Origin: an uncultured Opitutia bacterium
GTDB taxonomy: Bacteria; Verrucomicrobiota; Verrucomicrobiia; Opitutales; Opitutaceae
Assembly: GCA_903825285.1 (NCBI GenBank)
Contig: CAIJZY010000038.1
Coordinates: forward strand, 62,001-126,000
Direction: 5' to 3'
Length of the DNA stretch: 64,000 nt
In this document: in pieces, positions 797-17,076 of the stretch
Numbering within the stretch: the stretch's first letter is position 1
How the letters are laid out: every line of letters begins with the position of its first letter
Notes under the pieces: model-generated
Database searches by the model: none
The model's input: only the letters and a program-made list of their open reading frames with translations
Told to the model about the DNA's origin: nothing
Made by a program: the position numbers and the translations under genes

Positions 797-815
797 GGCG
801 GTGCGGGAAGCCCCG

Positions 816-2006: not shown

Positions 2007-2008
2007 GG

Positions 2009-2617
2009 CTAAAATTCGATGCCCGCCTGCGCCTTCACGCCCGCGTCGAAGGGGTGCTTGAGCACGCGCATCTCGGTCGCGAGGTCGGCCGCCGCGATCA
2101 GCCCGGCCGGCGCGCCGCGGCCGGTGATCACCAGGTGCTTGCCCGGAGCGTGGCCGCGCCAGGCGGCGAGGACCTCGGCGAGCGGGAGATAATCGTAGGC
2201 CAGCGCGATGTTGAGCTCATCCAGCAGGACCAGGCGGATGGCGGGATCGCGCAGGTAGCCGGCGGCGAGGGCGAGCCCCTCGCGGCAGCGCGCGATGTCG
2301 GCCGCGCGGTTCTGCGTGTCCCAGGTGAAACCGTCGCCGACCTGGTGCCACTGCAGGAGCGGGCCGCGCAGGGTGCGCTCGATCGCGGCGTCGCCGGCCT
2401 TGATGAACTGGATGACGGCGCAGCGCCCGCCATGCCCGAGCATGCGCGCGACCAGGCCGAATGCCGCGGTGCTCTTCCCCTTGCCGTCGCCCGTGTGCAC
2501 GATCAGCAGGTCGCGCTGCTCCCGCGCGGCGGCGATCTTGGCGTGCATTTCCGCCTGCAGGACCTTCATGCGCTCGCGATGCTCCGCCTCGAGGGGTTCG
2601 TCGGGTGAGGGGTTCAT
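2009..2617 (-). CDS. cobO: Cob(I)alamin adenosyltransferase (CobA/CobO/BtuR type)
   Basis: Transfers the adenosyl group of ATP to cob(I)alamin or cobinamide, making the coenzyme form that CbiZ and CbiB need. The 202-residue product has the P-loop variant HTGDGKGKSTAAFG at about residues 39-52, a Walker-B-like VLLDELN near residue 140, and the late VITGRGAP motif, all typical of the BtuR/CobO family. Length is normal. The ATG at 2617 overlaps the stop of the upstream ABC ATPase gene (ATGA), indicating translational coupling; longer in-frame starts would run inside that gene and are unlikely. Confidence 0.92.
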   Translation of the reverse strand: MNPSPDEPLEAEHRERMKVLQAEMHAKIAAAREQRDLLIVHTGDGKGKSTAAFGLVARMLGHGGRCAVIQFIKAGDAAIERTLRGPLLQWHQVGDGFTWDTQNRAADIARCREGLALAAGYLRDPAIRLVLLDELNIALAYDYLPLAEVLAAWRGHAPGKHLVITGRGAPAGLIAAADLATEMRVLKHPFDAGVKAQAGIEF

Positions 2618-3327
2618 GGCAAGTCGAGCGTCAGACCCGGGACAGTGTGCGCCCGCACGGCAAACACGTCGAGCAGCAGTTCCGGCGTGAGGATGTCCGC
2701 GGGGGTTCCGAACGCGCGCAACGCCCGCTCCCGCAGCACCACCACGTGGTCGAGACCATGGGCCACGCGGAGGTCGTGCAGCGAGAACAGCACCGTCGCG
2801 CCCGCCGCCGCGAGCGTGCGCGCCAGGCGCAGCACCTCCAGGCCGTGGCGCGGGTCGAGCGCCGCCAGCGGCTCGTCCCACAGCTGCAGGGGCGCCTCCG
2901 TGACCAGGGCCCGCGCCAGCAGGACGCGCGCGCGCTCGCCGTCGGACAGGTGATTCACCGAGCGGTCAGCCAGCGCCGTGAGGTCGAGCCGGGCCAGCGC
3001 CTCATCCACGCCCTTCTCGTCGTCACCGTGGGCGTAGCGCCCCTGCGAGACGACCGACCGGACGGAAAAGCCGAATTCAAAGTGCGCGCCGTGGGGCACC
3101 CAGGCCGCGTACCGGGCGCGCTCAATAAAGGGGATCTTCGCGAGGTCGCGACCCTGCCACACGACCTGGCCGGAGGCCGGGAGGATGCCCGCGGCCACCT
3201 GGAGGAGCGTGGACTTGCCGGCGCCGTTGGGCCCGACCAGCCCGATCAGGCTGCCGCGCGGGAGCCCGAGGCTCACCGGCAGCAGGCGGCCGGTCACGGC
3301 GGCGGCGCGGATGTCGAGGGCGTTCAT
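2614..3327 (-). CDS. btuD: ABC transporter ATP-binding protein, corrinoid import (BtuD-like)
   Basis: Cytoplasmic ATPase of the corrinoid importer. The 237-residue protein shows Walker A GPNGAGKSTLLQ (about residues 32-43), an ABC signature written LSDGERARVLLARAL rather than the usual LSGGE, Walker B LQLWDEPLAALD, and the H-loop histidine in LFSLHDLRVAH. It belongs to the FecE/BtuD family of iron-siderophore, haem and B12 importers. Substrate is assigned from the operon (riboswitch, BtuB-like receptor, cobalamin enzymes), not from the ATPase itself. It overlaps both neighbours by 4 bases, btuC upstream and cobO downstream. Confidence 0.85.
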   Translation of the reverse strand: MNALDIRAAAVTGRLLPVSLGLPRGSLIGLVGPNGAGKSTLLQVAAGILPASGQVVWQGRDLAKIPFIERARYAAWVPHGAHFEFGFSVRSVVSQGRYAHGDDEKGVDEALARLDLTALADRSVNHLSDGERARVLLARALVTEAPLQLWDEPLAALDPRHGLEVLRLARTLAAAGATVLFSLHDLRVAHGLDHVVVLRERALRAFGTPADILTPELLLDVFAVRAHTVPGLTLDLP

Positions 3328-4304
3328 GGCAGTTTCCTCAGCAGCCAGAGGAAGAAGGGTCCGCCGACCAGGGACGTGACGATTCCGAGCCGGAGGCCGC
3401 CGGCGGCGCGGCCGACCAGGTCGCAGCCCAGCACAAAGGCCGCGCCCCCGACCAGCGTGAGCGGGACCAGCCGCCGGTGCTCCGGGCCGACGAGCAGGCG
3501 GAGGATGTGCGGCACGATCAGCCCGACGAAGCCCACGGCCCCGGCGACGGCCGTGGCGAGGGCGGTCAGCACGGTGGACAGCACGAGCAGGTGGCGCCGC
3601 AGCCGGCGGGTGTCGACCCCGAGGCTCTGCGCCTCGGGCACGCCCAGGCTCAGCAAGTCCATCTGCCGGCCCAGCGGCCAGAGCACGGCGGCGGCGACGA
3701 TGATCGGCAGCGCGATCTGCACGTGCTCCCACGTCCGGTCCTCCACCCCGCCCATGAGCCAGAAGAGAATCTGCGTGTTGCGCTCGTAGAGCCCGGTGTA
3801 CTGCGTGAGCACGTAGCTGGTCACGGCCCCGAGCAGGGCGTTCAGCGCGACGCCCGCCAGCAGCAGCCGCTCGGTGCTGGCGCCGCGCCGGGCGAGCACG
3901 ATCACCGCCGCGCTGGCCGCGAGCGCGCCCACGATGGCGCCCAGCGGCAGGAACCACAGCGAGGCCGACGCCCAGCCGGCGGCGATGGTGACCACCGCGC
4001 CGGCGGCCCCGCCGCCGCTGACACCGAGGAGGCCGGGGTTCGCCAGGTTGTTCCGGAAGAAGGCCTGCATCACGAGTCCGGCCGACGAGAGCGCGGCGCC
4101 CACCAGCATGCCGACGATGAGCCGCGGCATGCGGATCTGCCAGATGATGGTCGACGCGAGCGAGTCCTCCCCGCACAACCCGGCCCAGGTCCGGGCCGGC
4201 GACAGGGTCATGTCGCCGGACATCAAGGCCGCCACCGCCAGCACGGCAAGCAGGACCAGCAGGACGGGCAGCGCCCAGCGGACCAATCGGGCGGGCAGGA
4301 TCAC
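3324..4304 (-). CDS. btuC: ABC transporter permease, FecCD family (BtuC-like)
   Basis: Inner-membrane channel of the corrinoid importer. The 326 residues are almost entirely hydrophobic helices, as in the ten-helix FecCD/BtuC family. Family motifs include RMPRLIVGMLVGAALSSAG near residue 60, NPGLLGVSGGGAAG near residue 88, LLAGVALNALLGA, and the loop GFVGLIVPHILRLLVG near residue 265, which contacts the ATPase. The start is a GTG that overlaps the stop of the substrate-binding protein gene; the 3' end overlaps btuD. These overlaps suggest stoichiometric co-translation of the three transporter parts. Confidence 0.88.
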   Translation of the reverse strand: MILPARLVRWALPVLLVLLAVLAVAALMSGDMTLSPARTWAGLCGEDSLASTIIWQIRMPRLIVGMLVGAALSSAGLVMQAFFRNNLANPGLLGVSGGGAAGAVVTIAAGWASASLWFLPLGAIVGALAASAAVIVLARRGASTERLLLAGVALNALLGAVTSYVLTQYTGLYERNTQILFWLMGGVEDRTWEHVQIALPIIVAAAVLWPLGRQMDLLSLGVPEAQSLGVDTRRLRRHLLVLSTVLTALATAVAGAVGFVGLIVPHILRLLVGPEHRRLVPLTLVGGAAFVLGCDLVGRAAGGLRLGIVTSLVGGPFFLWLLRKLP

Positions 4305-5149
4305 TTGAACACCTCCGGGTGCAGGGCCCGCGCCACGATCTCGTAGCCGCGCACGCGATGGTGCGACACGCAGCTGATCAGGTACGGCGGCAGCACGGCC
4401 ACGCGGCCGGCGCGCACGACTTCCATGAACTGGTAGGGTGGCATCGCCCGGAACGGGGCCAGGGCCGACTTCGCGTCGGCGCCGGCCACGACGACGAAGT
4501 CCAGCTGCCAGGTGAGCATCTGCTCGGAGGGCTGCGGCGCGTGGCCCACCAGGTGAGCGCGGGTCGCAGCCAGGTTTTCGGCGCCCACGTGGTCACAGAG
4601 ATCCTGAAAGGTCGTCTCGGTGCCGGGAATCAGTCCGTAGGTCGACGGCGCAATCACGCGCGCCGGAGTCGCGCCCTTCAGGCGGGCCTGGAGCGCGCGC
4701 ACCCGCGCCGCGCAGCTCGCGATCAGCGCCTCTCCGCGCTGGTCCGCGCCGAGCACGCGGGCGACCCGGCGGATGTTGGCGTAGGTGTCCTCGAGGGTCA
4801 GGTAGTGGTCGAAAATCTCCACGTGCATGCCCGCCCGCCGCAGCTGCGTCACCAGCTCGGGCCGGCTGTAGTCCGCGCAGAGGACCACGGTGGGATTGTA
4901 TTTCAGGATGGATTCCGCGTCGCCGTTGGCCGGGAGGATCGGATATTTCCGGGCCTCGTCGGGCACCGCGGAAAAATCCGGATCACCCGCCAGCGGACTC
5001 AGGGCCGCGATCTGCGCCGGGGCGGCCAGCGCGACCAGGAGCTCGTCGGTGCCCACCGTCTGGGACACGACCCGCACCGGGGCCGGGCCCGCGCGCAGGG
5101 CCGCGCCGGCCAGGAACAGCCCGAGGGTGAGGCACGCGAGGGTTTTCAT
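4301..5149 (-). CDS. btuF: Corrinoid ABC transporter substrate-binding protein (BtuF-like)
   Basis: Periplasmic protein that hands corrinoid to the permease. The product (282 residues from the chosen start) begins with a signal peptide (MKTLACLTLGLFLAGAALRAG) and then has the PeriBP_2/BtuF fold signature: RVVSQTVGTDELLVAL, LSPLAGDPDFSAV, ESILKYNPTVVLCADYS, and a long central helix followed by a second lobe. I chose the ATG at 5149 because it places the signal peptide at the N-terminus; an in-frame ATG at 5194 would add 15 residues and begins 9 bases after the receptor gene, so it cannot be excluded. Binding specificity is inferred from context. Confidence 0.83.
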   Translation of the reverse strand: MKTLACLTLGLFLAGAALRAGPAPVRVVSQTVGTDELLVALAAPAQIAALSPLAGDPDFSAVPDEARKYPILPANGDAESILKYNPTVVLCADYSRPELVTQLRRAGMHVEIFDHYLTLEDTYANIRRVARVLGADQRGEALIASCAARVRALQARLKGATPARVIAPSTYGLIPGTETTFQDLCDHVGAENLAATRAHLVGHAPQPSEQMLTWQLDFVVVAGADAKSALAPFRAMPPYQFMEVVRAGRVAVLPPYLISCVSHHRVRGYEIVARALHPEVFK

Positions 5150-5202
5150 GGTCCGGCGGACGACGGCGGGGGATGCGACGCGAAGATAAGGCATGGCGCG
5201 AA

Positions 5203-7041
5203 CTAGAACTTCCACTCGAGGCCGCCGTAGACGCCGCGCGGCAGGGCCGGATAGCCCTCCGTTTCCTGATAGGCGCGGTTGAGCAGGTTCTCCACGCGGA
5301 CCTTCACGAGGAGATTCGGCCCGAGCACGTAGCTCGCATGCACGCGGACCGTCGTGTAGCCGGGCAGCGGCGTCAGCGTGTAGACGCCGTCCACGCGATC
5401 CACGACCGTATGGAATCCCGCGCCGACCACCCACGCCGGCGTGGGCCGCGCCTCCAGGTTGGCGTCGAGGGTGTGCCGCGGGCGGCGGACCAGGCGCTGG
5501 TGGCTGTCGTTGTCCAACGCATCAAGGTAGGTGTAGGCCGCGCGCACCGTCACGAGCGGCGAGAGCTTGCCGCTCAGGCTGAACTCGCCGCCGCGCGTCG
5601 TGGCATGGCCGACGTTGATCTCCTCGCCCGCGAACGTGACGTAGTCCACGATCTGGTACTCGAGCAGGTCGTTGAACCGGTTTTCAAAATAGGTCAGCCC
5701 GACCGTCATGGCCCCGCCGAGCAGACTCTGGTCAAGGCCCGCATCCCAACCGCGGGATTTTTCCGGGCGCAGCGACGGATTCGGGAGCATGTAGGGCGGC
5801 GCGCCGTAACGGTCCGCCGGCGTGGGGGCGTTGAAGCCCGTGCCATAGGTGGCGCGCAGCTTCGTGTCGCCGCCGTTCAGCAGGTAGGCCGCGCCCGCGC
5901 GGCCGGTGGTGGCCTTGCCCTCCGCGTCGAAATCGTCGTGGCGCAGGCCGGCGGTCACCTCGACCTGCGGCGCCGGGTGCAGGGTGGCCGAGACATATTC
6001 GGCGAGCGACCGGTCGGAGGTCATGCCGCCGGACTGGTAGTAGGACCGCTCGGCATTCACGCCGGCCACGAGCTCCACGCCCTGGGCCGCCTTCCACGTG
6101 TTCTGCCAGTCGGCGATCTGCCGCGTGTTGCGCGCATAATAGCCGTAGGGGTCGCCCTTGTCCCAATTGTACTCGTCCTGGTACCAGGCGGCGGTCAGCC
6201 GGGAGGTGAAGTTCTCGCCCGTGGTCGCCTCGCCGTAGACGGTCACGAGGTCCGTGAGACTCTGCACGTCGCCCGGATAGGGGCTGAGCGTGGAGCCCGG
6301 CTCCTCGTAGTGGCCGACCTGCCCGCGCATCGTGGCGCCGACGAGCAGGCCGGGGGCGGCCTTGGTCTCCACGCGCGCGGAGTAGTTGGAGTTCTTGTAG
6401 CGGTTGTAGTCCCGGTCATTGTCCGTCTGCGTGTGACCCAGCGAGAGGCTGTATCCGGTGTCCGTTCCTCCGCCCTGCGAGGTGACGCCGGCGCCGAAGC
6501 TGCCGAACGAGCCGGCCGTGGCGGAGAGTGTGTCGGACACCGCCCCGCAGCCGCGGGTGGTCTCGAGCAGGATCACGCCGCCCATGGCCGAGCTGCCGTA
6601 GAGCGTGCTCTGCGGCCCGCGCAGCACCTCGACCCGGTCGAGGCCCGCGAGATCGGCCCCGCCGAGGAAATTGCCGTAGGAGGCGTTGCTGGTGTTGAGG
6701 CGCACGCCGTCCACGATGAAGAGCGTCTGGTTGGAATTGGCGCCGCGCATGAAGACGGCGCTCGTGCTGCCGGTGGCGCCGGAGTTCACCACGGTCACGC
6801 CAGGGGACTCCGCCAGCGCGGTGCGGAGATCCGTCACTTGCGCGGCGTGCAGGTCGTCCAGCGGCAGCGACGTCACCGCGCTGGGCAGCAGCTTCGGGTC
6901 CTGCGGGGAGCGCGAGGCGGAGACGATGTAGGTGTCCAGCTTGACGGCTGGCGCCTGGCCGCGCACGGCAGCCAGGGTCGCCACGAGGGCGAACATGAGC
7001 AAAGACTGGCCCGCGAGGCGGGACAGCAGGGAATGATTCAT
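5203..7041 (-). CDS. btuB: TonB-dependent outer membrane receptor for corrinoids (BtuB-like)
   Basis: Outer-membrane beta-barrel that takes up corrinoids with TonB energy. The 612-residue protein has a signal peptide (about residues 1-29), a TonB-box-like DTYIVSASR stretch, and a plug domain with LRTALAESPGVTVVNSG, MRGANSNQTLFIVDGVRLN and VEVLRGPQSTLYGSSAMGG. The barrel ends in the aromatic terminal strand YGGLEWKF, the usual insertion signal. The length equals that of E. coli BtuB. It is the first gene after a cobalamin riboswitch, which makes corrinoid the substrate with good confidence. A short hairpin sits directly before its start codon. Confidence 0.9.
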   Translation of the reverse strand: MNHSLLSRLAGQSLLMFALVATLAAVRGQAPAVKLDTYIVSASRSPQDPKLLPSAVTSLPLDDLHAAQVTDLRTALAESPGVTVVNSGATGSTSAVFMRGANSNQTLFIVDGVRLNTSNASYGNFLGGADLAGLDRVEVLRGPQSTLYGSSAMGGVILLETTRGCGAVSDTLSATAGSFGSFGAGVTSQGGGTDTGYSLSLGHTQTDNDRDYNRYKNSNYSARVETKAAPGLLVGATMRGQVGHYEEPGSTLSPYPGDVQSLTDLVTVYGEATTGENFTSRLTAAWYQDEYNWDKGDPYGYYARNTRQIADWQNTWKAAQGVELVAGVNAERSYYQSGGMTSDRSLAEYVSATLHPAPQVEVTAGLRHDDFDAEGKATTGRAGAAYLLNGGDTKLRATYGTGFNAPTPADRYGAPPYMLPNPSLRPEKSRGWDAGLDQSLLGGAMTVGLTYFENRFNDLLEYQIVDYVTFAGEEINVGHATTRGGEFSLSGKLSPLVTVRAAYTYLDALDNDSHQRLVRRPRHTLDANLEARPTPAWVVGAGFHTVVDRVDGVYTLTPLPGYTTVRVHASYVLGPNLLVKVRVENLLNRAYQETEGYPALPRGVYGGLEWKF

Positions 7042-7676: not shown

Positions 7677-9593
7677 CTATTTGCCCAGGCCGGCGCTGAG
7701 GACGTCGAGGGTGCCGAGACCGACGGCGGTGGACATCAGGTAGACGCCCGACCAGCCCTGCCGCACGAGTTCCTGGATCTGCTCCGCGGCGATGTCGCGG
7801 CCGACCTTGGCCTGGTCCTCCACCGTGGCGCGGGCCGCGATGCGCTGGAGCAGCTGCTCCGGGATCACCACGCCCGGCACCTGGGCCATGCGCTGCGCGT
7901 GCTCGAGGTTCGCCAGCACCATCACCCCGACCAGGAACGCACTCTGGCCGCGGTATTTCTCCAGCGCCCGCAGCGGCGCGGGATGAAACACCGGCTGGGT
8001 CATGATGTAATCCGCGCCCGCCGCGAGCTTCTGCTCCAGCCGGCTGAACTCGCGCGGCAGGTCCGGCGCCTCCGGCTCGACGCCGGCGCCGATCGTGAAA
8101 TGGGTGTGCGGCCGAGCGTGCTTGCCGAGCGGCACGCCGCCGAAGTCCACGCCGGCATTCAGGCAGGAGTGCGTCAGCCGGATCATCCCGATCGAGTCCA
8201 GGTCGAACACCGCCGACGAACGCGGGTAGGTCGGCGACATCTTCGGCGGGTCGCCCGTGACGAAGAGCACGTTGTGGATGCGGTTATGGTGATACCCCAC
8301 GAGCCGGCTCTGGATGCCCATGAGATTCAGGTCGCGGGCGGTGAAGTGCGGGATCAGCTCAATCGGGTCGCCCGACGCGGCCGTCCAGTTGAGCCGGGAC
8401 CGGATCACCTGGATGAAATCACCCGGCGAGATCAGCGGGATGCCGCGCGAGCCGTCCGTGAAGTCCACGGCGTCCACCAGCCCGGAAGCGGCCACGGCGG
8501 CCATGAAGTCCACCTTGGACTGGAGCACGCGCTCATCCGTGCCGCGCGGCGGCAGCGCCTCGAGGCTGACGACGAACTGCCCGGATTTCAGCTTGCGCGA
8601 GAACCCGCCGTTGGCGCGCTTCGCGTCATCCCCGACCGGGATGGCGGCGGGGGCCGCGGGCACGGCCACGGCGCGGTCGCCGACGCGGCGGGACTGGAGG
8701 TAGTTGCCCATCTCCTCGATGTGGGGCGGGTGCATCTCGCAGCAGCCGCCGAGCAGCCGCACGCCGAGATCGGAGAAGGTCCGGGCCAGCTTGCCCGCGA
8801 ACTCGGGGTTGACCGAGGTCATGAGCCGGCTGCCGATGCGCTGGAAGCCGCCCGCGTTCGGCATGACCACGAGCTGCACCGCGCCGGAGCGGACCGGCGG
8901 GGCGTCCTTGGCGGCGTCCACGAACGCGCTGGCGTCCCAGGGCGCGCAGCAGTTGACGCCCGCGACGGGCACGCCGAGCAGGGCCATGCGGTTGACGAAG
9001 GCGACGGGGTCGGGCTCGAGCGGCCCGCCGTTCTCGCCGCCGTGCGGGGACATCTCGGCGATGATCGGGGGCATGCCCGGCAGCGAGTGGATCAGCGCGA
9101 TCAGCAGCTCGAGCTGCGGCTGCGAGCTGAAGGTCTCCAGCAGCAGCGCGTCCGCGCCGGCGGCCGCGAGTGTCTCGACCTGCTCGCGGTAGCAGTCCGC
9201 CACGGCGGCAGCGGTGGTGAGCGGCGTGACGGTGGGGCCGACCGAGGCCAGCACGAAGTACGGGCCCGGGTCGCCCTGCACGGCGGAGAACTTCGCGATC
9301 GCGGACCGGGCGACCTGGACGCCGCCGCGATTGAGGGCCGCGACCCGGCCGTCGAGGCCGAACGGGCGCAACTGGACCCGGTTGGCGCCGAAGGTGTTGG
9401 TCTTGAGGCAGCGCGCGCCGGCGGCGAGGTACTCGGTGTGGACCCGCTGGACGAGTTCCGGCTGGTCGACGTTGAACGCCTCGTAGACGTGGTTGGATTC
9501 CGATAGGCGGCCCGTCAGCTTGAACAGGTAGGAGCCCATCGCCCCGTCGGCCAGGAGCGGCTGGGATTTCAGCGTAGCCAGGAAGTCCGCCAT
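7677..9593 (-). CDS. Bifunctional homocysteine S-methyltransferase / 5,10-methylenetetrahydrofolate reductase
   Basis: Two-domain enzyme of methionine synthesis. The N-terminal half (about residues 1-300) is a zinc homocysteine methyltransferase: LLADGAMGSYL at the start, GVNCCAP (zinc ligand near C215) and GGCCEMHPPH (C284, C285). The C-terminal half (about 330-620) is a MetF-type flavin reductase that makes 5-methyl-THF, with VSLEALPPRG, NVLFVTGDPP and an AGADYIMTQPVF segment. The layout matches the YitJ family and the 638-residue length is normal. I placed the start at the ATG at 9593, just ahead of the conserved N-terminus. It is the last gene of the one-carbon block and gives a second MTHFR beside the one at 12330-13943. 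The methyltransferase domain lacks a B12-binding module. Confidence 0.9.
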   Translation of the reverse strand: MADFLATLKSQPLLADGAMGSYLFKLTGRLSESNHVYEAFNVDQPELVQRVHTEYLAAGARCLKTNTFGANRVQLRPFGLDGRVAALNRGGVQVARSAIAKFSAVQGDPGPYFVLASVGPTVTPLTTAAAVADCYREQVETLAAAGADALLLETFSSQPQLELLIALIHSLPGMPPIIAEMSPHGGENGGPLEPDPVAFVNRMALLGVPVAGVNCCAPWDASAFVDAAKDAPPVRSGAVQLVVMPNAGGFQRIGSRLMTSVNPEFAGKLARTFSDLGVRLLGGCCEMHPPHIEEMGNYLQSRRVGDRAVAVPAAPAAIPVGDDAKRANGGFSRKLKSGQFVVSLEALPPRGTDERVLQSKVDFMAAVAASGLVDAVDFTDGSRGIPLISPGDFIQVIRSRLNWTAASGDPIELIPHFTARDLNLMGIQSRLVGYHHNRIHNVLFVTGDPPKMSPTYPRSSAVFDLDSIGMIRLTHSCLNAGVDFGGVPLGKHARPHTHFTIGAGVEPEAPDLPREFSRLEQKLAAGADYIMTQPVFHPAPLRALEKYRGQSAFLVGVMVLANLEHAQRMAQVPGVVIPEQLLQRIAARATVEDQAKVGRDIAAEQIQELVRQGWSGVYLMSTAVGLGTLDVLSAGLGK

Positions 9594-9639
9594 AATAATG
9601 CGCCGTTCACTACGGCGGCCCCGGAGTGAAGTCAAAGGC

Positions 9640-9687
9640 GCTGCGGGTCATGCGGGAGGCCCGGGGGGCGTCCCGCGTGACCGCAGC
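9640..9687. repeat. Long intergenic hairpin between fhs and the methyltransferase/MTHFR gene
   Basis: The two flanks of this 48-base segment pair over about 16 positions (GCTGCGG...CCGCAGC outside, GCGGGA...TCCCGC inside). No run of T follows on either strand, so it does not look like an intrinsic terminator. It may stabilise or attenuate the message between the two genes. A second small hairpin (9601-9617) lies just before the downstream start codon. Confidence 0.5.
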
Positions 9688-9712
9688 CTTGGGCGCGCGG
9701 CGGAACCGGCGC

Positions 9713-11398
9713 CTAGAACAGCCCGACGATCTGGCCCTGGTCGTCGAGGTCGATGACCTCGGCGGCGGGGACCTTCGGCAGGCCGGGCATGGTCATGATC
9801 TCGCCGGTGAGGCAGACGATGAAGCCGGCGCCGGCGGAGACGTTGACCTCGCGGATCTCGACGTCGAAGCCGGTGGGGCGGCCCCGCAGGTTCGGGTCGG
9901 TCGAGAACGAGTACTGCGTCTTCGCCATGCAGATCGGGAACTTCCCGTAGCCGGACTTCTGCAGGTCCTCGAACTTCGTCTTCACGCGGGCGCTGGCGAC
10001 GATGTCCTTCGCGCCGTAGATCTTCTGCGCGATGGTGCGGACCTTCTCCCAGAGCGGGAGGTCGTCCGGGTAGAGCAGCTTGAACTGCTTGCCGGGCTTC
10101 TCCGCGACCGTGACGACCGCGCGGGCGAGCGCCTCGGCGCCGGCGCCGCCGTCGGCCCAGTGCGTGGCCGGCACGGCCTGCACGCCGAGCTTGGCGCAGC
10201 GCTGCTGGATGACGGCAAACTCCTCGTCGGTGTCGGAGGTGAAGCGGTTGATGGCGACAACGGCGGGGACGCCGTAGCTGGCGATGTTCTCGAGGTGCTT
10301 CTCGAGGTTCGCGAGGCCCTTCTCGACGGCGGCGACGTTCGGGGCCTTGAGGTCCTTCTTGTCCACGCCGCCGTGCATCTTCAGCGCGCGCACGGTGGCG
10401 ACGATGACGATGGCGTCGGGCGCCAGGCCGGCGAAGCGGCACTTGATGTCGAGGAACTTCTCGGCGCCGAGGTCGGCGCCGAAGCCCGCCTCGGTGACGG
10501 TGTACTCGCCGAGGCTGAGGGCGAGCTTGGTGGCGAGCACGCTGTTGCAGCCGTGCGCGATGTTGGCGAACGGGCCGCCGTGCACGAACGCGGGGTTGTT
10601 CTCCAGCGTCTGCACGAGGTTGGGCGCGAGGGCGTCGCGCAGCAGCACGGCCATGGCGCCGTGGGCCTTGAGGTCGGCGGCGGTGACGGGCTTCTTCTCG
10701 CGCGTGTAGCCGACGACGATCCGGCCGAGGCGCTCGCGGAGCTCCTTGAGGTCCTGCGAGAGGCAGAAGATCGCCATGACCTCGGAGGCGACCGTGATGT
10801 CGAAGCCGGATTGGCGGCAGACGCCGTTGGCCACGCCACCCATGCCGACGACGATCTCGCGCAGGGCGCGGTCGTTCATGTCCATGACGCGCTTCCAGAC
10901 GATGCGGTTCGGGTCGAGCCCGAGCGCGTTGCCGTGGGTGAGGTGGTTGTCCACCATCGCGGACAGGAGATTGTGCGCGGAGGTGATGGCGTGGAAATCG
11001 CCCGTGAAGTGGAGGTTGATGTCCTCCATCGGCATGACCTGCGCGTAGCCGCCGCCGGCCGCGCCGCCCTTGACGCCGAAGCTCGGTCCGAGCGAAGGCT
11101 CGCGGAGGCAGATGATGGCGCGCTTGCCAATGCGGTTGAGCGCGTCGCCCAGCCCGACCGTCGTGGTGGTCTTGCCCTCGCCGGCCGGCGTGGGCGAGAT
11201 CGCGGTGACGAGGACGAGGCGGCCGCGGGGCTTCGCGAGCTGCTTCTGGTAGAAGCTGAGCCCCACCTTGGCCTTGTACTTGCCGTAGTGCTCCAGGTCG
11301 TCCGGCGGGATGTTCAGCCGGGCCGCGACCTTATCGATCGGCAGCATCTTTGCCTGGTGGGCAATTTCGATGTCAGAGGGGACAATCTTGGTGGCCAT
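9713..11398 (-). CDS. fhs: Formate-tetrahydrofolate ligase
   Basis: ATP-dependent enzyme that loads formate onto tetrahydrofolate to give 10-formyl-THF, the entry step of the folate one-carbon (methyl) branch. The 561-residue product shows the family signatures [18 protein letters not shown] (P-loop, about residues 70-87), [31 protein letters not shown], and near the C-terminus [20 protein letters not shown]. Length is normal. It starts with ATG at 11398 and lies 26 bases after the AcsE-like gene, so co-transcription is likely. Paired with MetF and AcsE homologues, it completes most of a Wood-Ljungdahl-style methyl branch; a FolD protein is not in the window. Confidence 0.95.
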
Positions 11399-11424
11399 GG
11401 TGGTAACGGTTTTAGGGGAAGGGG

Positions 11425-12294
11425 TCAGCTGGAGTAGTATTCCTGCACGCGCATGATGACGTCGAAGCCCTCGAGCTTCAGGCAGTCGGTCAGGCAGAGC
11501 ATGGCGGGATGATCGGGCGCCAGCACCTCGTACTTGCGCTTCACGGAGCCGATGACGTGGTCCATGCCGAGCGGCCCGGCCATGGTGAGGAACGCGCTCT
11601 CAAGCGGGCCCTTGGTGGGCGAGCCGTCGGCGCGCTTCGGCGGGAGCATCACGCTGAAATTGCTCAGGCCAACCGACATGTGGACGCCCTTCAGCGCCGG
11701 GTCGGCGTGGATGAGGTGGATCGCGCCCATCAGGCACTGGAACCGGCCGTCGGAGTCGGCGCCGATCGGCGAGATGGCCGGGTCGATGATGCAGTGGTTC
11801 ACCGGAATCCCATGCGTGCCGGCCTCGGCCACCAGCTCGCGCGCGGTCTGGTGGACCTCGGCGGCGGTGTGACAGGGCTGGCTGACGCCCTTGGCATCCA
11901 CGCGCTCGGACGCGAGGAGGATGGGCATGAACGGCATGATTTTCGTGAGCCCGAACATCTGGCGCCGCGTCTGGGCGATCGAATTCAGGACCGGCAGCAT
12001 TCCGCCGGCGCGCGCGCGGTCGTAGGCCTTGAGCCCCGCCTCGGCCATCACCGGGTCCGGCGTGTCGATCGAGAGCGGTTTGGCGGTGACGCCCTGGACC
12101 TGGCGCACCATCTCGGCGAGGAACTCGGCGGTACGCGGACCGACGTTGACGTCAATGTAGCCGGCGCCGCCGACGTCCTGGGACTTGGCGAGCTCCTTCA
12201 GGCCGACGAGGTCGTTCGCCTCGAAAAGCTTGTTGGTCGACGGAACCGAGTCGTTGATCGATTCGCCGATGATCGTGAGGTTGGGGATAGGCAT
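11425..12294 (-). CDS. Methyltetrahydrofolate:corrinoid methyltransferase, AcsE-like (pterin-binding family)
   Basis: Pterin-binding TIM-barrel protein of 289 residues. The sequence begins [13 protein letters not shown], continues with the YIDVNVGPR motif (compare ALDLNVGP in acetogen AcsE), [14 protein letters not shown], a stretch [12 protein letters not shown], and [17 protein letters not shown] (compare VLGLSNVSQN). These match the methyl-THF:corrinoid iron-sulfur protein methyltransferases rather than true dihydropteroate synthase. It would pass the methyl group of 5-methyl-THF to a corrinoid protein, or the reverse. No corrinoid partner or CO dehydrogenase/acetyl-CoA synthase gene is in the window, so the acceptor is unknown. 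It lies between the MetF-MetV gene (35 bases upstream) and fhs. Confidence 0.8.
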
Positions 12295-12329
12295 GGGTAG
12301 AGGGTGGCGTGGAGGAGGAAGGGGCGCGA

Positions 12330-13943
12330 TCAGCTTTTCGCCTTGGGCGGGGCGGCGGGCTCAGCCGGGGCGGCGGGCGCGGCGACATGGTGGTGGTCGC
12401 GTCCGAGAAAATTGTTCGCCCAGCCCGAGGAACCCATGAGGGCGGGGTTGGCGAAGACGGCCGGGCCGTCGAGCATGTGCCGGGACTCGCCGTAGTATTT
12501 CAGCCGGTCGTAACCGCGGGCCCAGATGCAATCCTTGTCATCCAGCTCGCACCGGCCGTCGAACGAACCGCCGCACGGGCCGTTGCGCTGCGTCTTGGAG
12601 CACGAGGCGCGCGGGCAGAAGTAGCCGGTGTCCGGCAGCGAGCAGTCGCCGCAGTCCTTGCAGCCGAACATCGCGGTCTTCGACAGGTGCTCGAGCGTGT
12701 GCAGCGCCTTGAGCGTCGTGGTGTGCTCGCCCTGCTCGAGCCGCTGGTAGGTCTGCTGGACCGCCGGGAACACGCCCTTGCCCGGCGTGAACGCCAGCCC
12801 GTGCATCAGGCGCGTGAAGCGGTAGGTCAGGTTGACCTCCTTCGGCTTGGCCGGGTCGTCGAGCGATTTCAGGTACTCGGAATTGAGCCGGCCGCCGTCG
12901 CCGAGCTTGGTCTCCGGGTCCTGCTCAAACAGGTAGAACTCGCCGTCCTTCGGGTACTGGATCTCCTTGGCGAACTCCTTCCAGTCGTTCGGGCCGTAGC
13001 TCTCGGCCAAGTCGATGATCTGGGCGAAGGACTCGGCCTTGTGGATGCCGCCGAGGTAGCCGGCGGCGAAGCCGAGGCCCTTGAACACCGCGAGCTGCCG
13101 GGCGGCGAGCTCGGTGAAGAAGGCCTTCCCCTTGTCCGGGCCGGCGCCGTACTTCTCGACCTGCGCGAGGAGCGCGTCGCTCACCACGCAGCCGGGAATC
13201 TTGTTCTGGTTGAACATCCGGGCCACGACCCGGTTCAGCACGTAGACGTTGCCGACGATCGGCGCGGAGAGGTTCATCCAGTCGAGAAAGAGCCGGATTT
13301 CCTGGAATTTCCGCATGTCGTAGCCGAGCTGCGGGACCACCCAGCCCGCGCCGCACTGGAGCTTGCGGGCCAGCTTGAAGTACTGCGGCATCAGCTCGCG
13401 CTCCTGGCGCTTGAACGGCGCCACGGCGCAGCCGATGAAGAAATTGGTCTTGGGCAGCTTGTCGGTCTTGCCGTTGGGCTTGGCGACCTCGAGCCCCTCG
13501 TTCATCGAGCGCAGCATCGAGATGAGGCTCACCGAATCCAAATCGAAGACCGGCTGCGCCGGCCCGTTGAAACCCGCCGTCGGATAATCGCCCGTCAGCG
13601 CGAGCAGGTTGTTGAACCCCTCCGCCGCATACCGCCAGGCCGCCGACTCCAGCCCGTTTCGGTTGAGATCCTTGCACGTCAGATGGATGACCAGCTCCTT
13701 GCCGCGCGGCTTGAGGATGTTCGCGATCCAGTCCGCCGGGATCATCGGGTTGCCGCCGGGATTGTCCGTGATCGACACCCACGCGATGCGCGAGTCCGCC
13801 GCCAAGCCCTCGCCCAGCTCCACGAGCTTCGGCCGCTGGTCAGGCTCGGGAATGCCGCGCGTCGTCACCAACTCGGCTCCGTAAATGAACCGGTTGGAGA
13901 TCAGCATCTCGCGAAAGGAGGAATCGGGGGTAGGTTCGATCAT
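12330..13943 (-). CDS. Methylenetetrahydrofolate reductase fused to a MetV-type cysteine-rich domain
   Basis: The first 320 residues are a MetF-type TIM barrel (VSITDNPGGNPM, VIHLTCKDLNRNGLES, ALTGDYP), reducing methylene-THF to methyl-THF. From about residue 420 comes a cysteine-rich module with CKDCGDC (428-434), C443, C448, C457, C465 and C472, the pattern of the MTHFR C-terminal/MetV domain that in acetogens is a separate zinc/Fe-S subunit. The tail is Ala/Pro-rich. The fusion suggests electrons reach the flavin from a ferredoxin- or hydrogenase-type partner rather than NAD(P)H directly, but that is inference. The start (ATG at 13943) puts the protein at 537 residues; no clear ribosome-binding site is seen. 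First gene of the one-carbon block. Confidence 0.85.
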   Translation of the reverse strand: MIEPTPDSSFREMLISNRFIYGAELVTTRGIPEPDQRPKLVELGEGLAADSRIAWVSITDNPGGNPMIPADWIANILKPRGKELVIHLTCKDLNRNGLESAAWRYAAEGFNNLLALTGDYPTAGFNGPAQPVFDLDSVSLISMLRSMNEGLEVAKPNGKTDKLPKTNFFIGCAVAPFKRQERELMPQYFKLARKLQCGAGWVVPQLGYDMRKFQEIRLFLDWMNLSAPIVGNVYVLNRVVARMFNQNKIPGCVVSDALLAQVEKYGAGPDKGKAFFTELAARQLAVFKGLGFAAGYLGGIHKAESFAQIIDLAESYGPNDWKEFAKEIQYPKDGEFYLFEQDPETKLGDGGRLNSEYLKSLDDPAKPKEVNLTYRFTRLMHGLAFTPGKGVFPAVQQTYQRLEQGEHTTTLKALHTLEHLSKTAMFGCKDCGDCSLPDTGYFCPRASCSKTQRNGPCGGSFDGRCELDDKDCIWARGYDRLKYYGESRHMLDGPAVFANPALMGSSGWANNFLGRDHHHVAAPAAPAEPAAPPKAKS

Positions 13944-14392: not shown

Positions 14393-15187
14393 CTAAACGC
14401 GGGACTTGGTTTTCCGCGCGGCGGTTTTTGGCGGCGTCGGGGCGACGGCCGGCGGGGCGGGCTGGCCTTTGCCGGCGTCGCGGTACTGCTTCGGCGTGGT
14501 TTTTTTCAGGCTCTGGAAGACGTGCGTGAAATAGCTCTGGTCGCAAAAGCCGGAATCGAGCGCGATCGCGGCGACCGTCATCTCGGTCTTCACGAGCAGC
14601 TCGCAGGCCCGCTCGATGCGCGCCTCGCGGAGCAGCTCGGTGAACGACCGGCCGGTGCGTTCCTTGAGCAGGTCGGAGAGGTTGCGCGGCGAGACCCCGA
14701 CCTGGCGGGCGACCTGCTCGCGGGTAAGGACGCCGCCGGCGCCGGCGCGGATGAGCTCGAGCGCCTTGCGCACGGGCTGTGGGACGCTCAGCGCGCGGCA
14801 GCGCTCGACCGCGTCGAAGATGCGCAGCACGGCCTCGCGCAGCCAGCGCGACAGCTGCTCGTCGTCGGTGATCGCGGCGAGCTCGGTGAGGTGGCGGTAG
14901 CGCAGCCCGAGCACCTCGGACTGCGGGGCACCGGCCTCGACCGCCGCCCGCGACATCATGACCACCAGCTCGAGCAGAAGTCCCTTGAGCAGCTCGCTGC
15001 GCTCCGCACCCGCGGCGTAGATGTGAACCAGGATGAGATTGATGATGCGCGTGGCCTGTTTGCGGTCGCCGCGCTGGATCGACGCGAGGAGGGCCGGCTC
15101 CTCGTAGAGATAAAGCTCCCGGATCCGGTCGTAGGGATGGACCGGGTTGACCGCGACCGACGGAAAATCATTGGGCGTCTGGGCCAT
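14393..15187 (-). CDS. AraC-family transcriptional regulator
   Basis: 264-residue DNA-binding regulator. The C-terminal third carries two helix-turn-helix motifs: TREQVARQVGVSPRNLSDLLKE (first helix-turn-helix) and MTVAAIALDSGFCDQSYFTHVFQ followed by TPKQYR (second, AraC signature). The N-terminal part (about residues 25-135) is an all-helical region with ALLASIQRGDRKQATRIINLIL and LVVMMSRAAVEAGA, a segment I know from regulators that also carry a PocR ligand-binding domain; the PocR domain itself is absent. The tail is Ala/Pro/Lys-rich. It starts 15 bases after the GH2 gene and is probably co-transcribed with it. Its targets could be the GH2 gene or the neighbouring one-carbon operon. Confidence 0.85.
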   Translation of the reverse strand: MAQTPNDFPSVAVNPVHPYDRIRELYLYEEPALLASIQRGDRKQATRIINLILVHIYAAGAERSELLKGLLLELVVMMSRAAVEAGAPQSEVLGLRYRHLTELAAITDDEQLSRWLREAVLRIFDAVERCRALSVPQPVRKALELIRAGAGGVLTREQVARQVGVSPRNLSDLLKERTGRSFTELLREARIERACELLVKTEMTVAAIALDSGFCDQSYFTHVFQSLKKTTPKQYRDAGKGQPAPPAVAPTPPKTAARKTKSRV

Positions 15188-15201: not shown

Positions 15202-17076
15202 TTAGCGGCGGGTGCCGGAGGATTTCCTCGCGGGCCGCTCGATGGCCGCGGGCCGCTGCTGCGCGGCGCGGACGCGGCGGAGGTCGAATTTTCTCCGTCG
15301 GTCGAAATAAAAGATGCCGTTCTGTTCCTGGTACACGTCGGTGAGCTGGGTGTAGCAGTAGCCGAACATCCGGCGATTGTCCAAGAGCGCGGCGCAGAGC
15401 CGCTCGAACCGCGTGAAAAATACCTCGAGGCTCTTCGGCCGGTCGCCATAACCCCAGGACGCGTCGCCGGGCCGCGCGCGCGGATTCCACCAGATGCCGC
15501 CGAACTCGCTGACGAAGTACGGCTGGCCCGGCTGCCAGGGGACGGACTGGTGCATCAGCGTGTCCTTCACGAACGGCCGGTCGGCGAGCAGGCCGTCGTG
15601 GCGCCGCTTGAACGTCCCGGGGTTCTGGTCGTAGTCATGGCCGTCGTAGACATCCGACTCCGCGAGGCCGTGCGCATAGCCGGAGACGTCGAGCACCGGG
15701 CGCGTGGCATCGTAGAGCTTGGTGGCGAGAAACAGCCCGCGCATGAGGTCGTCGTGCACGGTGAAACGCTCGTCCTGGCGGCGCTGGGTCTCATTGAGCG
15801 GGCACCAGCCGACAATGCTGGGATGGTTGAAGTCGCGCTGCAGCGCCTCGATCCACTGGGTGAAGAGGGACGGCGGAAAATTATTTCCCCCATGATTGCC
15901 CGCGCGCTCGATGGCGCCGTCGGGCCGCTGCTGCCAGCCGCGCACGGGTTCGCCGCCGTTGAGCCCCCAGTCGCTGAACTCGCCCCAGACGAGGTAGCCG
16001 AGCCGGTCGGCATGATAGAGGAATCGTTCCTCAAACACCTTCTGATGGAGCCGCGCGCCGTTGAAGCCGGCAGCGAGCGAAAGCTTGATGTCGCGCACGA
16101 GCGCGGCGTCGGACGGCGCCGTCAGGATGCCGTCGGGATAATAGCCCTGGTCGAGCACGAGCCGCTGGAACACCGGCCGGCCGTTGAGCTTCACGGCGTA
16201 ATTCTCGAGGCTCACGCTGCGCAGGCCGGCGTAGCTCTCCACGCGGTCCACCACGCGGCCCTGCGCGTCCACCAGCTCGAGTTCGAGGTCGTAGAGGTGA
16301 GGGTCCTCGGGCGACCAGGGCCGCAGGCTTCCGGCCGGCACCGCCAGGTCGAGGCGCGGATAAAAGCCCTCGCCACAGGCGCAGCTGGCCTCGCCGAGCA
16401 GCTTCCGGCCGGAGCGCAGGCGCGCGCGGTAGGTCAGCCCGGATTGATTCCCCTGCACGGGCTGCTCGATCACGAAGCGGCGGTGCGCGAGGTCCGGCAG
16501 GATCTTCGGCCGCAGCAGGTGCGCGCGAAGCGGCACCGGCTCGAGCCAGACGGTCTGCCAGATCCCGGTGGTGCGCGTGTAGTGGCAGCCGGAGTTGGCG
16601 AAGGTCCAGGACTGCTTGCCGGACGGCATGGACTCGCGCGCGTGGTCGCGGGCGCGGACGATGAGCGTCACCTTTTTCCCGGGCACCGCGACCGCGGTGA
16701 GATCGCACGTGAACGGGGTCATGCCGCCGCGGTGGCGTCCGACCTCGGTGCCGTTCGCCCAGACAAACGTGTCGTAGTCGCTCGCCTGGAAATGCAGCAG
16801 GATCCGCCGCCCGCGCCAGGCCGCGGGGATGGCGACGTCGCGGCGGTACCACACGGCATTAAGGTAGTCGGTGTTCTCCACGCCCGAGAGCTTCGACTCC
16901 GGGCAGAACGGCACGACGATCGTGTCGTGCAGCGGCCGTTGCAGCAGCCCGCGGTCGAGCCCGCTGTCCCCCTGGTCGATTTCAAATTGCCAGCGACCGT
17001 TGAGGCAAAGCCAGTCGCGCCGCACCAGCTGCGGCCGGGGATACTCAGGGCGGGGCACGGGAAAAAGTCGGGCCAT
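15202..17076 (-). CDS. Glycoside hydrolase family 2 protein (beta-galactosidase/glucuronidase type)
   Basis: 624 residues with the GH2 domain order: jelly-roll sugar-binding domain (about 20-180, with NGRWQFEID and AVWYRRDVAIP), immunoglobulin-like domain (180-300), and TIM barrel (300-600). Catalytic residues are visible: the acid/base glutamate E429 in CPLNETQ and the nucleophile E524 in FVSEFGG. No signal peptide is evident at the chosen start (MARLFPVP, ATG at 17076), so it may act in the cytoplasm. Substrate cannot be told from sequence; galactosides, glucuronides or other beta-glycosides are all possible. It forms a likely two-gene unit with the AraC regulator and is divergent from the LMF-family gene. 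Confidence 0.87.
   Translation of the reverse strand: MARLFPVPRPEYPRPQLVRRDWLCLNGRWQFEIDQGDSGLDRGLLQRPLHDTIVVPFCPESKLSGVENTDYLNAVWYRRDVAIPAAWRGRRILLHFQASDYDTFVWANGTEVGRHRGGMTPFTCDLTAVAVPGKKVTLIVRARDHARESMPSGKQSWTFANSGCHYTRTTGIWQTVWLEPVPLRAHLLRPKILPDLAHRRFVIEQPVQGNQSGLTYRARLRSGRKLLGEASCACGEGFYPRLDLAVPAGSLRPWSPEDPHLYDLELELVDAQGRVVDRVESYAGLRSVSLENYAVKLNGRPVFQRLVLDQGYYPDGILTAPSDAALVRDIKLSLAAGFNGARLHQKVFEERFLYHADRLGYLVWGEFSDWGLNGGEPVRGWQQRPDGAIERAGNHGGNNFPPSLFTQWIEALQRDFNHPSIVGWCPLNETQRRQDERFTVHDDLMRGLFLATKLYDATRPVLDVSGYAHGLAESDVYDGHDYDQNPGTFKRRHDGLLADRPFVKDTLMHQSVPWQPGQPYFVSEFGGIWWNPRARPGDASWGYGDRPKSLEVFFTRFERLCAALLDNRRMFGYCYTQLTDVYQEQNGIFYFDRRRKFDLRRVRAAQQRPAAIERPARKSSGTRR

What the first reader, a model, noticed from the sequence alone, without database searches (positions are those of the whole stretch)
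7677..13943. Methyl-branch one-carbon cluster with two MTHFRs and an AcsE-like methyltransferase beside the B12 operon
MetF-MetV fusion, an AcsE-like methyl-THF:corrinoid methyltransferase and Fhs form most of a Wood-Ljungdahl methyl branch, followed by a second MTHFR in a homocysteine methyltransferase fusion. No CO dehydrogenase, acetyl-CoA synthase or corrinoid protein is in the window. The methyl acceptor is therefore unknown and two MTHFRs in one block hint at different electron donors or directions (for example oxidative methyl use versus methionine synthesis).
Basis: partly seen in the sequence, partly recalled or inferred. Interest (0 to 1): 0.7.

Follow-up and report, generated by a model that had tools for sequence, protein, structure and literature searches.

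The report
Shared hub for many methyl-removing enzymes

Summary
In detail: MetF-MetV fusion, AcsE-like methyltransferase, Fhs and a homocysteine-methyltransferase/MTHFR fusion, beside B12 genes. The interpretation changes in two points. (1) The missing corrinoid partner is 7 kb outside the window on the same contig: one MtgC-like corrinoid protein, one RACo activator, DUF1638, a stand-alone homocysteine methyltransferase and ten URO-D-family genes. In 10 of 29 named relatives both halves face each other within the fetched DNA. (2) The AcsE homologue is neither a CODH/ACS enzyme nor a dihydropteroate synthase; it is best read as methyltransferase II of a corrinoid demethylation system, feeding tetrahydrofolate, then MetF-MetV, FolD, Fhs, formate dehydrogenase and respiration. 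The surprise is the fan-in: 29 non-HemE URO-D matches here and about 25 to 54 in relatives, with one activator per genome counted and one corrinoid protein found here. Two paralogues flank an L-rhamnose mutarotase next to a rhamnose transporter; the mutarotase stays with these paralogues in four other genomes, so some substrates are probably O-methylated deoxy sugars. Parts are known; the many-to-one architecture, host and sugar context are a new variant. G056 has hub and array but no AcsE homologue. No biochemistry.

The parts
12330..13907 (-). MetF-MetV fusion (methylene-THF reductase with C-terminal MetV cysteine-rich domain)
   Evidence: PF02219 and PF12225; sequence with a C-x2-C-x2-C cluster and further cysteines; within 400 bp of the AcsE-like gene in 26 of 29 named loci
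11425..12294 (-). AcsE-like methyltransferase, read here as MT II (methyl-corrinoid protein:THF methyltransferase)
   Evidence: PF00809 and PRK07535; IGExIN, IDP and GLSN shared with the solved methyl-THF:corrinoid methyltransferases printed; own clade, apart from E. coli FolP
9713..11398 (-). Fhs, formate-tetrahydrofolate ligase
   Evidence: PF01268 914 bits; PRK13505 931 bits, cut-off 652
7677..9593 (-). homocysteine S-methyltransferase / MTHFR fusion
   Evidence: PF02574 and PF02219; NCC and GGCC motifs (zinc-ligand role recalled) present
5203..7041 (-). TonB-dependent receptor, BtuB-like
   Evidence: TIGR01779 232 bits, below its cut-off of 599.7
4301..5149 (-). periplasmic binding protein of the putative corrinoid ABC transporter
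   Evidence: PF01497 on the longer frame 4301-5434
3324..4304 (-). putative permease of the corrinoid ABC transporter
   Evidence: gene call and position only; not scanned
2614..3327 (-). ATPase of the putative corrinoid ABC transporter
   Evidence: PF00005 on the longer frame 2614-4176
2009..2617 (-). CobA/BtuR corrinoid adenosyltransferase
   Evidence: TIGR00708 197 bits, over its cut-off
816..2006 (-). CbiZ adenosylcobinamide amidohydrolase (corrinoid salvage)
   Evidence: PF01955 188 bits
2..796 (-). CbiB (cut by the window edge)
   Evidence: PF03186; TIGR00380 168 bits, over its cut-off
14393..15187 (-). AraC-family regulator upstream of the operon, candidate regulator
   Evidence: PF12833; a homologue at 64% identity or more lies by the block in 8 of 29 named loci
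15202..17058 (-). glycoside hydrolase family 2 protein (nearest NCBIfam model: beta-glucuronidase, below cut-off), conserved neighbour
   Evidence: PF02837/PF00703/PF02836, PRK10150 139 bits, cut-off 544; homologues at 77-82% in the cluster region of seven other genomes
33656..34744 (-). one of the dispersed URO-D-family paralogues (candidate MT I)
   Evidence: PF01208 51.7 bits at G000:C38:95689-96228; gene

Best explanation
The block is the common downstream end of a corrinoid-dependent demethylation system. Many URO-D-family methyltransferases (MT I, each with its own substrate) move a methyl group from an O-methylated compound to one shared corrinoid protein, which the RACo protein keeps in the Co(I) state. 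The AcsE-like protein (MT II) passes the methyl group from the corrinoid protein to tetrahydrofolate. MetF-MetV oxidises methyl-THF to methylene-THF, FolD makes formyl-THF, Fhs releases formate with gain of ATP, and a formate dehydrogenase and oxygen respiration finish the oxidation. Part of the methyl groups can go to homocysteine (stand-alone and fused homocysteine methyltransferases). At least some MT I substrates are probably O-methylated sugars such as methyl-rhamnose. Shown by sequence: the genes, intact motifs, linkage, co-occurrence, absence of CODH/ACS hits, presence of FolD, formate dehydrogenase and oxidases. Inferred: direction of flux, the sharing of one corrinoid protein by the MT Is, and the substrates.
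For: Corrinoid protein, RACo, DUF1638, homocysteine methyltransferase and ten URO-D genes lie 0.2-18 kb left of the window on the same contig. In nine of nine fetched loci of the distant AcsE homologues of the family (32-36% identity) the corrinoid protein, RACo and a URO-D gene lie in the same 16-20 kb, in eight also MetF-MetV. In L112 corrinoid protein, MetF-MetV, AcsE, Fhs, homocysteine methyltransferase and URO-D follow in this order, RACo and DUF1638 diverging. RACo is in 20 of 20 genomes with the AcsE homologue (E below 1e-30) and 12 of 75 without. Three same-genus genomes without the AcsE gene have no RACo and one URO-D each. FolD; formate dehydrogenase 785 bits, cut-off 666; aa3-type and cbb3-type oxidases over their cut-offs. 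RhaT-URO-D-RhaM-URO-D, RhaM with the same URO-D orthologue in four other genomes.
Against: No biochemistry, no expression data. Twelve of 75 genomes have RACo without a close AcsE homologue. No URO-D gene was seen in 17 of 29 named close loci; seven of these (L095, L099, L103, L106, L110, L111, L113) have full 10 kb flanks. In G031 the AcsE block and RACo are on different contigs, the AcsE gene 43 kb inside a 258 kb contig. L107 lacks MetF-MetV and Fhs beside AcsE, L111 lacks MetF-MetV; G005 has none beside its distant AcsE. Of four other homologues at 40-57%, L118 and L119 have corrinoid protein and RACo nearby, L117 (21 kb) and L120 (4.5 kb) show neither. Most URO-D paralogues lie among unrelated genes. 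The genome is a 62-contig draft, 95.98% complete, so further corrinoid proteins may be missing.
Confidence: 0.75

Rival explanations
1. The block is mainly for methionine: methyl groups, made from formate by Fhs and MetF-MetV or harvested by the corrinoid protein, go to homocysteine through the two homocysteine methyltransferases, a split methionine synthase.
For: Two homocysteine methyltransferases in the cluster, both with the NC and GGCC motifs. Dual use of a corrinoid module for demethylation and methionine synthesis is reported in Ruegeria (PMC12478193, abstract, opening and outline seen).
Against: The genome already has a complete MetH split over two adjacent genes with activation domain. 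The homocysteine methyltransferase/MTHFR fusion is seen in 14 of 29 close loci (flanks limited), MetF-MetV in 26 and Fhs in 28. It does not explain the large URO-D family.
Confidence: 0.14
2. The URO-D proteins methylate acceptors (as MtaA methylates coenzyme M), with the AcsE-like protein charging the corrinoid protein from methyl-THF: a biosynthetic methylation system fed by formate.
For: Such methyl transfers are reversible in principle, and some URO-D members methylate an acceptor (recalled). Two scored paralogues show weak similarity to the MtaA/CmuA models, 41 and 47 bits, far below cut-offs.
Against: Telling neighbours are uptake and breakdown genes: RhaT, RhaM, aldolases, sugar-acid dehydratase, glycoside hydrolases, and a LigM/DesA-like demethylase beside a second MetF-MetV.
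Confidence: 0.07
3. A rival on substrates only, compatible with the main mechanism: the MT Is act mostly on methoxylated aromatics from lignin and humics, as known O-demethylases do, not on sugars.
For: URO-D, MetF-MetV and a LigM/DesA-like gene are contiguous on contig C10. UroD-family MtvB, OdmB and VdmB act on methoxylated aromatics (PMC13222342, passages).
Against: In the own genome sugar-type neighbours occur at C32 (RhaT, RhaM), C21 (sugar transporter) and C3 (GH2-type), against one aromatic-type neighbour at C10. No ring-cleavage gene was recognised among 71 neighbours of 21 of the 29 paralogues, but only 25 of 83 matched families were printed.
Confidence: 0.3

Closest known systems
Bacterial corrinoid O-demethylase systems (MtvABC, Odm, Vdm) and the CdmBCA chloromethane system
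   Same: URO-D-family MT I, separate corrinoid protein, THF-methylating MT II, ATP-dependent activator (PMC13222342 and PMC8630106, passages seen)
   Different: One corrinoid protein found with 29 mostly dispersed MT I candidates; no CODH/ACS hit; Verrucomicrobiota host with oxygen-reducing oxidases; adjoining MetF-MetV, Fhs and homocysteine methyltransferases; sugar-linked paralogues. Large UroD sets as such are not unique: 20 CdmB paralogues are named in the methods of PMC13222342
Type 1 mlp gene clusters
   Same: Several URO-D-family proteins with a corrinoid protein and a RACo-type activator (PMC10418091, section 9 part 1)
   Different: The first clusters described there lack an H4folate methyltransferase and the genera are given as obligate anaerobes; here an H4folate-type methyltransferase is linked to the system and the host has oxygen-reducing oxidases
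MtgC/MtgD system of aerobic marine bacteria
   Same: Corrinoid-dependent demethylation in aerobic bacteria with a link to methionine (PMC12478193, abstract, opening and outline)
   Different: Substrate there is glycine betaine; no URO-D array is mentioned in the abstract; presence of MtgB/MttB in this genome was not tested
AcsE of the Wood-Ljungdahl pathway
   Same: Same superfamily and shared motifs
   Different: Own clade; no PF03599 or PF03063 match in the genome

Membership tests
Corrinoid demethylation system (MT I, corrinoid protein, MT II, activator) | MT I of the URO-D family linked to the corrinoid protein | tested here: met
   ten PF01208 matches on C38 left of the window, one of them below the cut-off; 30 in the genome including HemE
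Corrinoid demethylation system (MT I, corrinoid protein, MT II, activator) | small corrinoid protein with DxHxxG motif | tested here: met
   PF02607 and PF02310, motif DLHDIG
Corrinoid demethylation system (MT I, corrinoid protein, MT II, activator) | RACo-type reductive activator | tested here: met
   PF14574 217 bits and PF17651 164 bits
Corrinoid demethylation system (MT I, corrinoid protein, MT II, activator) | THF-type MT II of the pterin-binding family linked to the system | tested here: met
   window 11425-12294; with corrinoid protein, RACo and URO-D in nine of nine distant loci of the family; but absent in G056
Corrinoid demethylation system (MT I, corrinoid protein, MT II, activator) | demethylation of a substrate and methyl-THF formation | not testable with these tools
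   needs assays
Wood-Ljungdahl AcsE | partner corrinoid iron-sulfur protein and CODH/ACS in the genome | tested here: not met
   PF03599 0 matches; PF03063 0 matches in the own genome; AcsB not searched by its own model
Wood-Ljungdahl AcsE | score over the CODH_ACS_meth cut-off | tested here: not met
   50 bits, cut-off 370
Dihydropteroate synthase | matches DHPS models and groups with FolP | tested here: not met
   no DHPS model among the NCBIfam hits at E 0.001; FolP is the outlier of the tree, on a very long branch
Type 1 mlp gene cluster | Mlp2 and Mlp3 subfamily members, no H4folate methylase | tested here: inconclusive
   H4folate-type methyltransferase present, unlike the clusters described first in that paper; Mlp subfamily placement not tested
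Split methionine synthase | separate homocysteine, folate and corrinoid modules acting together in place of MetH | tested here: inconclusive
   the modules are in the cluster, but a complete two-gene MetH is elsewhere

The most novel reading that the evidence does not exclude
Freshwater Verrucomicrobiota run a hub-and-spoke methyl harvest: about 25 to 54 highly diverged corrinoid methyltransferases, many of them for O-methylated sugars of algal and plant polysaccharides, all charge one corrinoid protein, and one shared oxidative branch turns the methyl groups into formate, ATP and NADH in oxygen-respiring cells. Corrinoid-dependent O-demethylation of sugars would be a new reaction for the URO-D family as far as my paper searches show.
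Probability: 0.45. Interest if true: 0.82.

Novelty: new variant of a known kind. Interest (0 to 1): 0.63.

Why it matters
O-methyl groups occur on sugars of algal, cyanobacterial and plant polysaccharides and stand in the way of their use (general knowledge, not tested here). A whole paralogue family with one shared corrinoid hub would give oxygen-respiring lake bacteria a way to strip many of them, would give a use to the B12 uptake and salvage genes next door, and would supply dozens of unassigned enzymes with a testable partner and acceptor.

Tried and rejected
Wood-Ljungdahl membership was considered and rejected: no PF03599 or PF03063 match in the own genome. Dihydropteroate synthase was rejected; the PDB chain 4o0q, titled DHPS, was kept with the methyltransferases because its further entries 4o1e and 4o1f serve as THF and methyl-THF templates for an MT II in PMC13222342 (passages).

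A general sugar theme for all paralogues was tested by scanning 71 neighbours of 21 paralogues (the eight in L006 were left out, and neighbours cut by a stretch end were dropped). It is not shown: no family occurs in more than two neighbours (GFO/IDH/MocA oxidoreductases, AraC regulators, a transporter component, GNAT). The sugar reading rests on single operons. The motif E-x14-E-x20-H (recalled for aromatic O-demethylases) was scanned in 32 proteins, the 30 URO-D matches including HemE and two divergent cluster proteins: 2 of 32 have it, at unlike positions; HxC occurs in 17 of 32. This says little about substrate.

RACo matches marked with an internal TGA: in the own genome the match runs onto the gene's terminal stop, so the gene is not broken; the other genomes were not checked. 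Gene calling trained on the longest frames picked antisense frames in this GC-rich window and was redone on known genes. No cobalamin riboswitch was found in the window, L006, L088, L124 or L127 at Rfam gathering thresholds. MetF-MetV gave no PDB sequence match at E 0.001.

Searches for earlier reports: searches returned 0 papers; of the papers listed no title or abstract start describes a URO-D array or corrinoid sugar demethylation in Verrucomicrobiota. Lists were cut at 12 to 20 rows, and only open-licence papers are held. In passages of PMC10444878 O-methylation of sugars is mentioned once, without a demethylase.
Full report
What is in the window. On the minus strand the window holds, in order of transcription, an AraC-type regulator, a MetF-MetV fusion, an AcsE-like methyltransferase, Fhs, a homocysteine methyltransferase/MTHFR fusion, a BtuB-like TonB receptor, an ABC transporter, CobA, CbiZ and CbiB. 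The permease of the transporter was placed by gene call and position only.

What lies just outside. The window is G000:C38:62001-126000 of a 62-contig genome of 3.74 Mb. Between 43.8 and 61.8 kb on the same contig lie ten URO-D genes by Pfam (one below the cut-off), one RACo activator, DUF1638, one corrinoid protein related to MtgC and MtbC (below those models' cut-offs), and a stand-alone homocysteine methyltransferase. The corrinoid protein has the DLHDIG motif and ends 6.8 kb from the window. A further protein of that run without a Pfam match (L006:12707-13792) was modelled from nine sequences (mean pLDDT 72, pTM 0.76); its only two PDB fold matches at E 0.001 or better are uroporphyrinogen decarboxylase 3gw0 and the methyltransferase 4ay8. 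One more protein there (L006:3642-4913) matched nothing in Pfam or the PDB sequences.

The two halves belong together. In 10 of 29 named close loci (L090-L094, L096, L098, L100, L109, L116) the orthologue of the last URO-D gene of that run faces the Fhs or homocysteine methyltransferase/MTHFR gene, without the B12 operon between them; URO-D genes are seen in 12 of 29, a corrinoid protein in 4 of 29 (flanks are at most 10 kb and many contigs end earlier). In L112 the corrinoid protein, MetF-MetV, AcsE, Fhs, homocysteine methyltransferase and URO-D follow in this order, with RACo and DUF1638 diverging; in L107 the corrinoid protein precedes the AcsE gene. Nine of nine loci around distant AcsE homologues of the family (32-36% identity; L079 to L087) have corrinoid protein, RACo and a URO-D gene in the same 16-20 kb, eight of nine also MetF-MetV. 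Against: 17 of 29 close loci show no URO-D gene, seven of them with full 10 kb flanks; in G031 the AcsE block and RACo lie on different contigs; L107 and L111 lack part of the block; and of four homologues outside this group (40-57%), L118 and L119 have corrinoid protein and RACo nearby while L117 and L120 do not.

Co-occurrence. Among 95 genomes (own genus, family and order, own genome included) 20 have an AcsE homologue at E below 1e-30, 11 of them at 64% identity or more. RACo is in 20 of these 20 and in 12 of the other 75 (Fisher p 1.3e-12; the genomes are related, so the p value is only a guide). G056 does have a corrinoid protein, RACo, DUF1638 and URO-D genes together, so the hub can exist without this MT II. 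Three same-genus genomes without AcsE (G003, G007, G009; G007 is 83% complete) have no RACo and a single URO-D, HemE by score.

The size of the URO-D family. The own genome has 30 URO-D matches, one below the cut-off and one HemE by score (396 bits). Counted without the cap, six close relatives have 26, 46, 46, 28, 55 and 39, and G056 has 25; these counts include HemE (except probably G056, whose best match is 214 bits) and may include fragments. Each of these genomes has one RACo. In the own genome three proteins have a B12-binding domain: MetH, the corrinoid protein and a mutase-related protein; corrinoid proteins in the relatives were not counted. Median pairwise identity among 32 own proteins (the 30 matches plus two divergent cluster proteins) is 20%, highest 66%, so this is an old, diversified family, not a recent tandem duplication.

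What the AcsE-like protein is. Its best solved relatives are Carboxydothermus AcsE (57 bits), the 4o0q/4o1e/4o1f chain (54 bits) and Moorella AcsE (45 bits); IGExIN, IDP and GLSN are shared with all of them (species names recalled). In a tree of 47 rows it sits in a Verrucomicrobiota group of eight rows with support 99/98; the three PDB rows group apart and E. coli FolP is an outlier on a very long branch, so deep placement is unsure. It scores 50 bits with the CODH_ACS_meth model, cut-off 370. No PF03599 or PF03063 match exists in the genome. It is therefore read as MT II.

Direction. The genome has FolD, a formate dehydrogenase alpha subunit with a NuoG-like N-terminus (785 bits, cut-off 666), an aa3-type oxidase (695, cut-off 671) and a cbb3-type oxidase (1205, cut-off 1080). 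Together with Fhs and MetF-MetV this gives a full route from methyl-THF to CO2 with oxygen as acceptor. The direction is an inference. Part of the methyl groups may go to methionine; a complete two-gene MetH elsewhere makes that unlikely to be the main role.

Substrates. On contig C32 the order is RhaT, URO-D, RhaM, URO-D. Places in four other genomes were picked because of a similar pair or score, and all four hold the orthologue of the first URO-D (77-85%) with RhaM (82-86%) next to it or, in G001, one gene away: G049 and G011 as URO-D, RhaM, URO-D; G031 as URO-D, RhaM without the second URO-D; G001 with RhaT, URO-D, URO-D, RhaM. RhaT is beside the pair only in the own genome and G001; in G002 and G011 a RhaT homologue lies by other URO-D genes. 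In G049 a class II aldolase and in G011 a DHDPS-family aldolase adjoin; in G001 and G049 other URO-D genes lie next to a GH57/GH38-like hydrolase, and in G011 one lies between an altronate/galactarate dehydratase and RhaT. On contig C10 a URO-D gene lies with a second MetF-MetV and a LigM/DesA-like protein (432 bits to 5x1i; DesA model 563, cut-off 800; LigM model 522, cut-off 580). Most other paralogues have no telling neighbour. So sugars are likely for some, aromatics for some, and open for most.

Host. Named relatives at 79-92% AcsE identity are MAGs labelled Opitutae, Opitutaceae, Cephaloticoccus, Verrucomicrobia or Akkermansiaceae; one at 76% is labelled Lentisphaerae. That several come from lakes was read from isolate names. 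[quoted passage not shown] 'uroporphyrinogen' and 'tetrahydrofolate' do not occur in that paper's held text.

Comparison. The parts match known MT I, corrinoid protein, MT II, activator systems (PMC13222342 and PMC8630106, passages). Type 1 mlp clusters share URO-D proteins, corrinoid protein and activator, but the first ones described lack the H4folate methyltransferase (PMC10418091, section 9 part 1). Aerobic corrinoid demethylation has a precedent in Ruegeria (PMC12478193, abstract). Large UroD sets are not unique (20 CdmB paralogues are named in PMC13222342). What differs here is the single corrinoid protein and activator found, the host with oxygen-reducing oxidases, and the sugar-linked members.

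Noticed in passing
L127:2870-6922 (G000:C10, about 104.9-108.9 kb): URO-D gene, second MetF-MetV fusion and a LigM/DesA-like THF-dependent O-demethylase in one run: a corrinoid-type and a THF-type demethylase gene side by side.
   Followed up: partly
L153 (G056:C1:6045001-6065000): G056 has corrinoid protein, RACo, DUF1638 and URO-D genes together and 25 URO-D matches in the genome, but no AcsE homologue at E 0.001; its methyl acceptor is unexplained.
   Followed up: no
L007:4173-8034 (G000:C9): Methionine synthase MetH is split into two adjacent genes, homocysteine domain (375 aa) and folate/B12/activation domains (902 aa).
   Followed up: partly
L006:3642-4913: 423-residue protein inside the URO-D run with no match in Pfam or PDB sequences.
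   Followed up: partly
L006:7596-8261: DUF1638 gene diverging from the corrinoid protein gene and next to RACo, kept in several relatives (L072, L073, L080, L093, L094, L112, L153); another copy in L144 near the RhaM-linked URO-D pair. Role unknown.
   Followed up: partly
L088:6076-7743: 555-residue protein with three TonB C-terminal domain stretches in one chain.
   Followed up: no
L126:5464-6219, L122:170-946, L152:11109-11870: PhyH-like dioxygenase genes (by sequence start or tblastn; one PhyH Pfam match among the 71 neighbours) in the neighbourhood of URO-D genes; the one in L126 also adjoins a sugar MFS transporter.
   Followed up: no
window 1-7041: The B12 salvage and uptake operon sits between two blocks that face each other in 10 of 29 named relatives, and no cobalamin riboswitch was found at Rfam thresholds.
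   Followed up: partly
L130:3733-9574: A URO-D gene lies among what look like sulfate assimilation genes (named by sequence start; one PAPS_reduct match occurs among the 71 neighbours, member not named).
   Followed up: no
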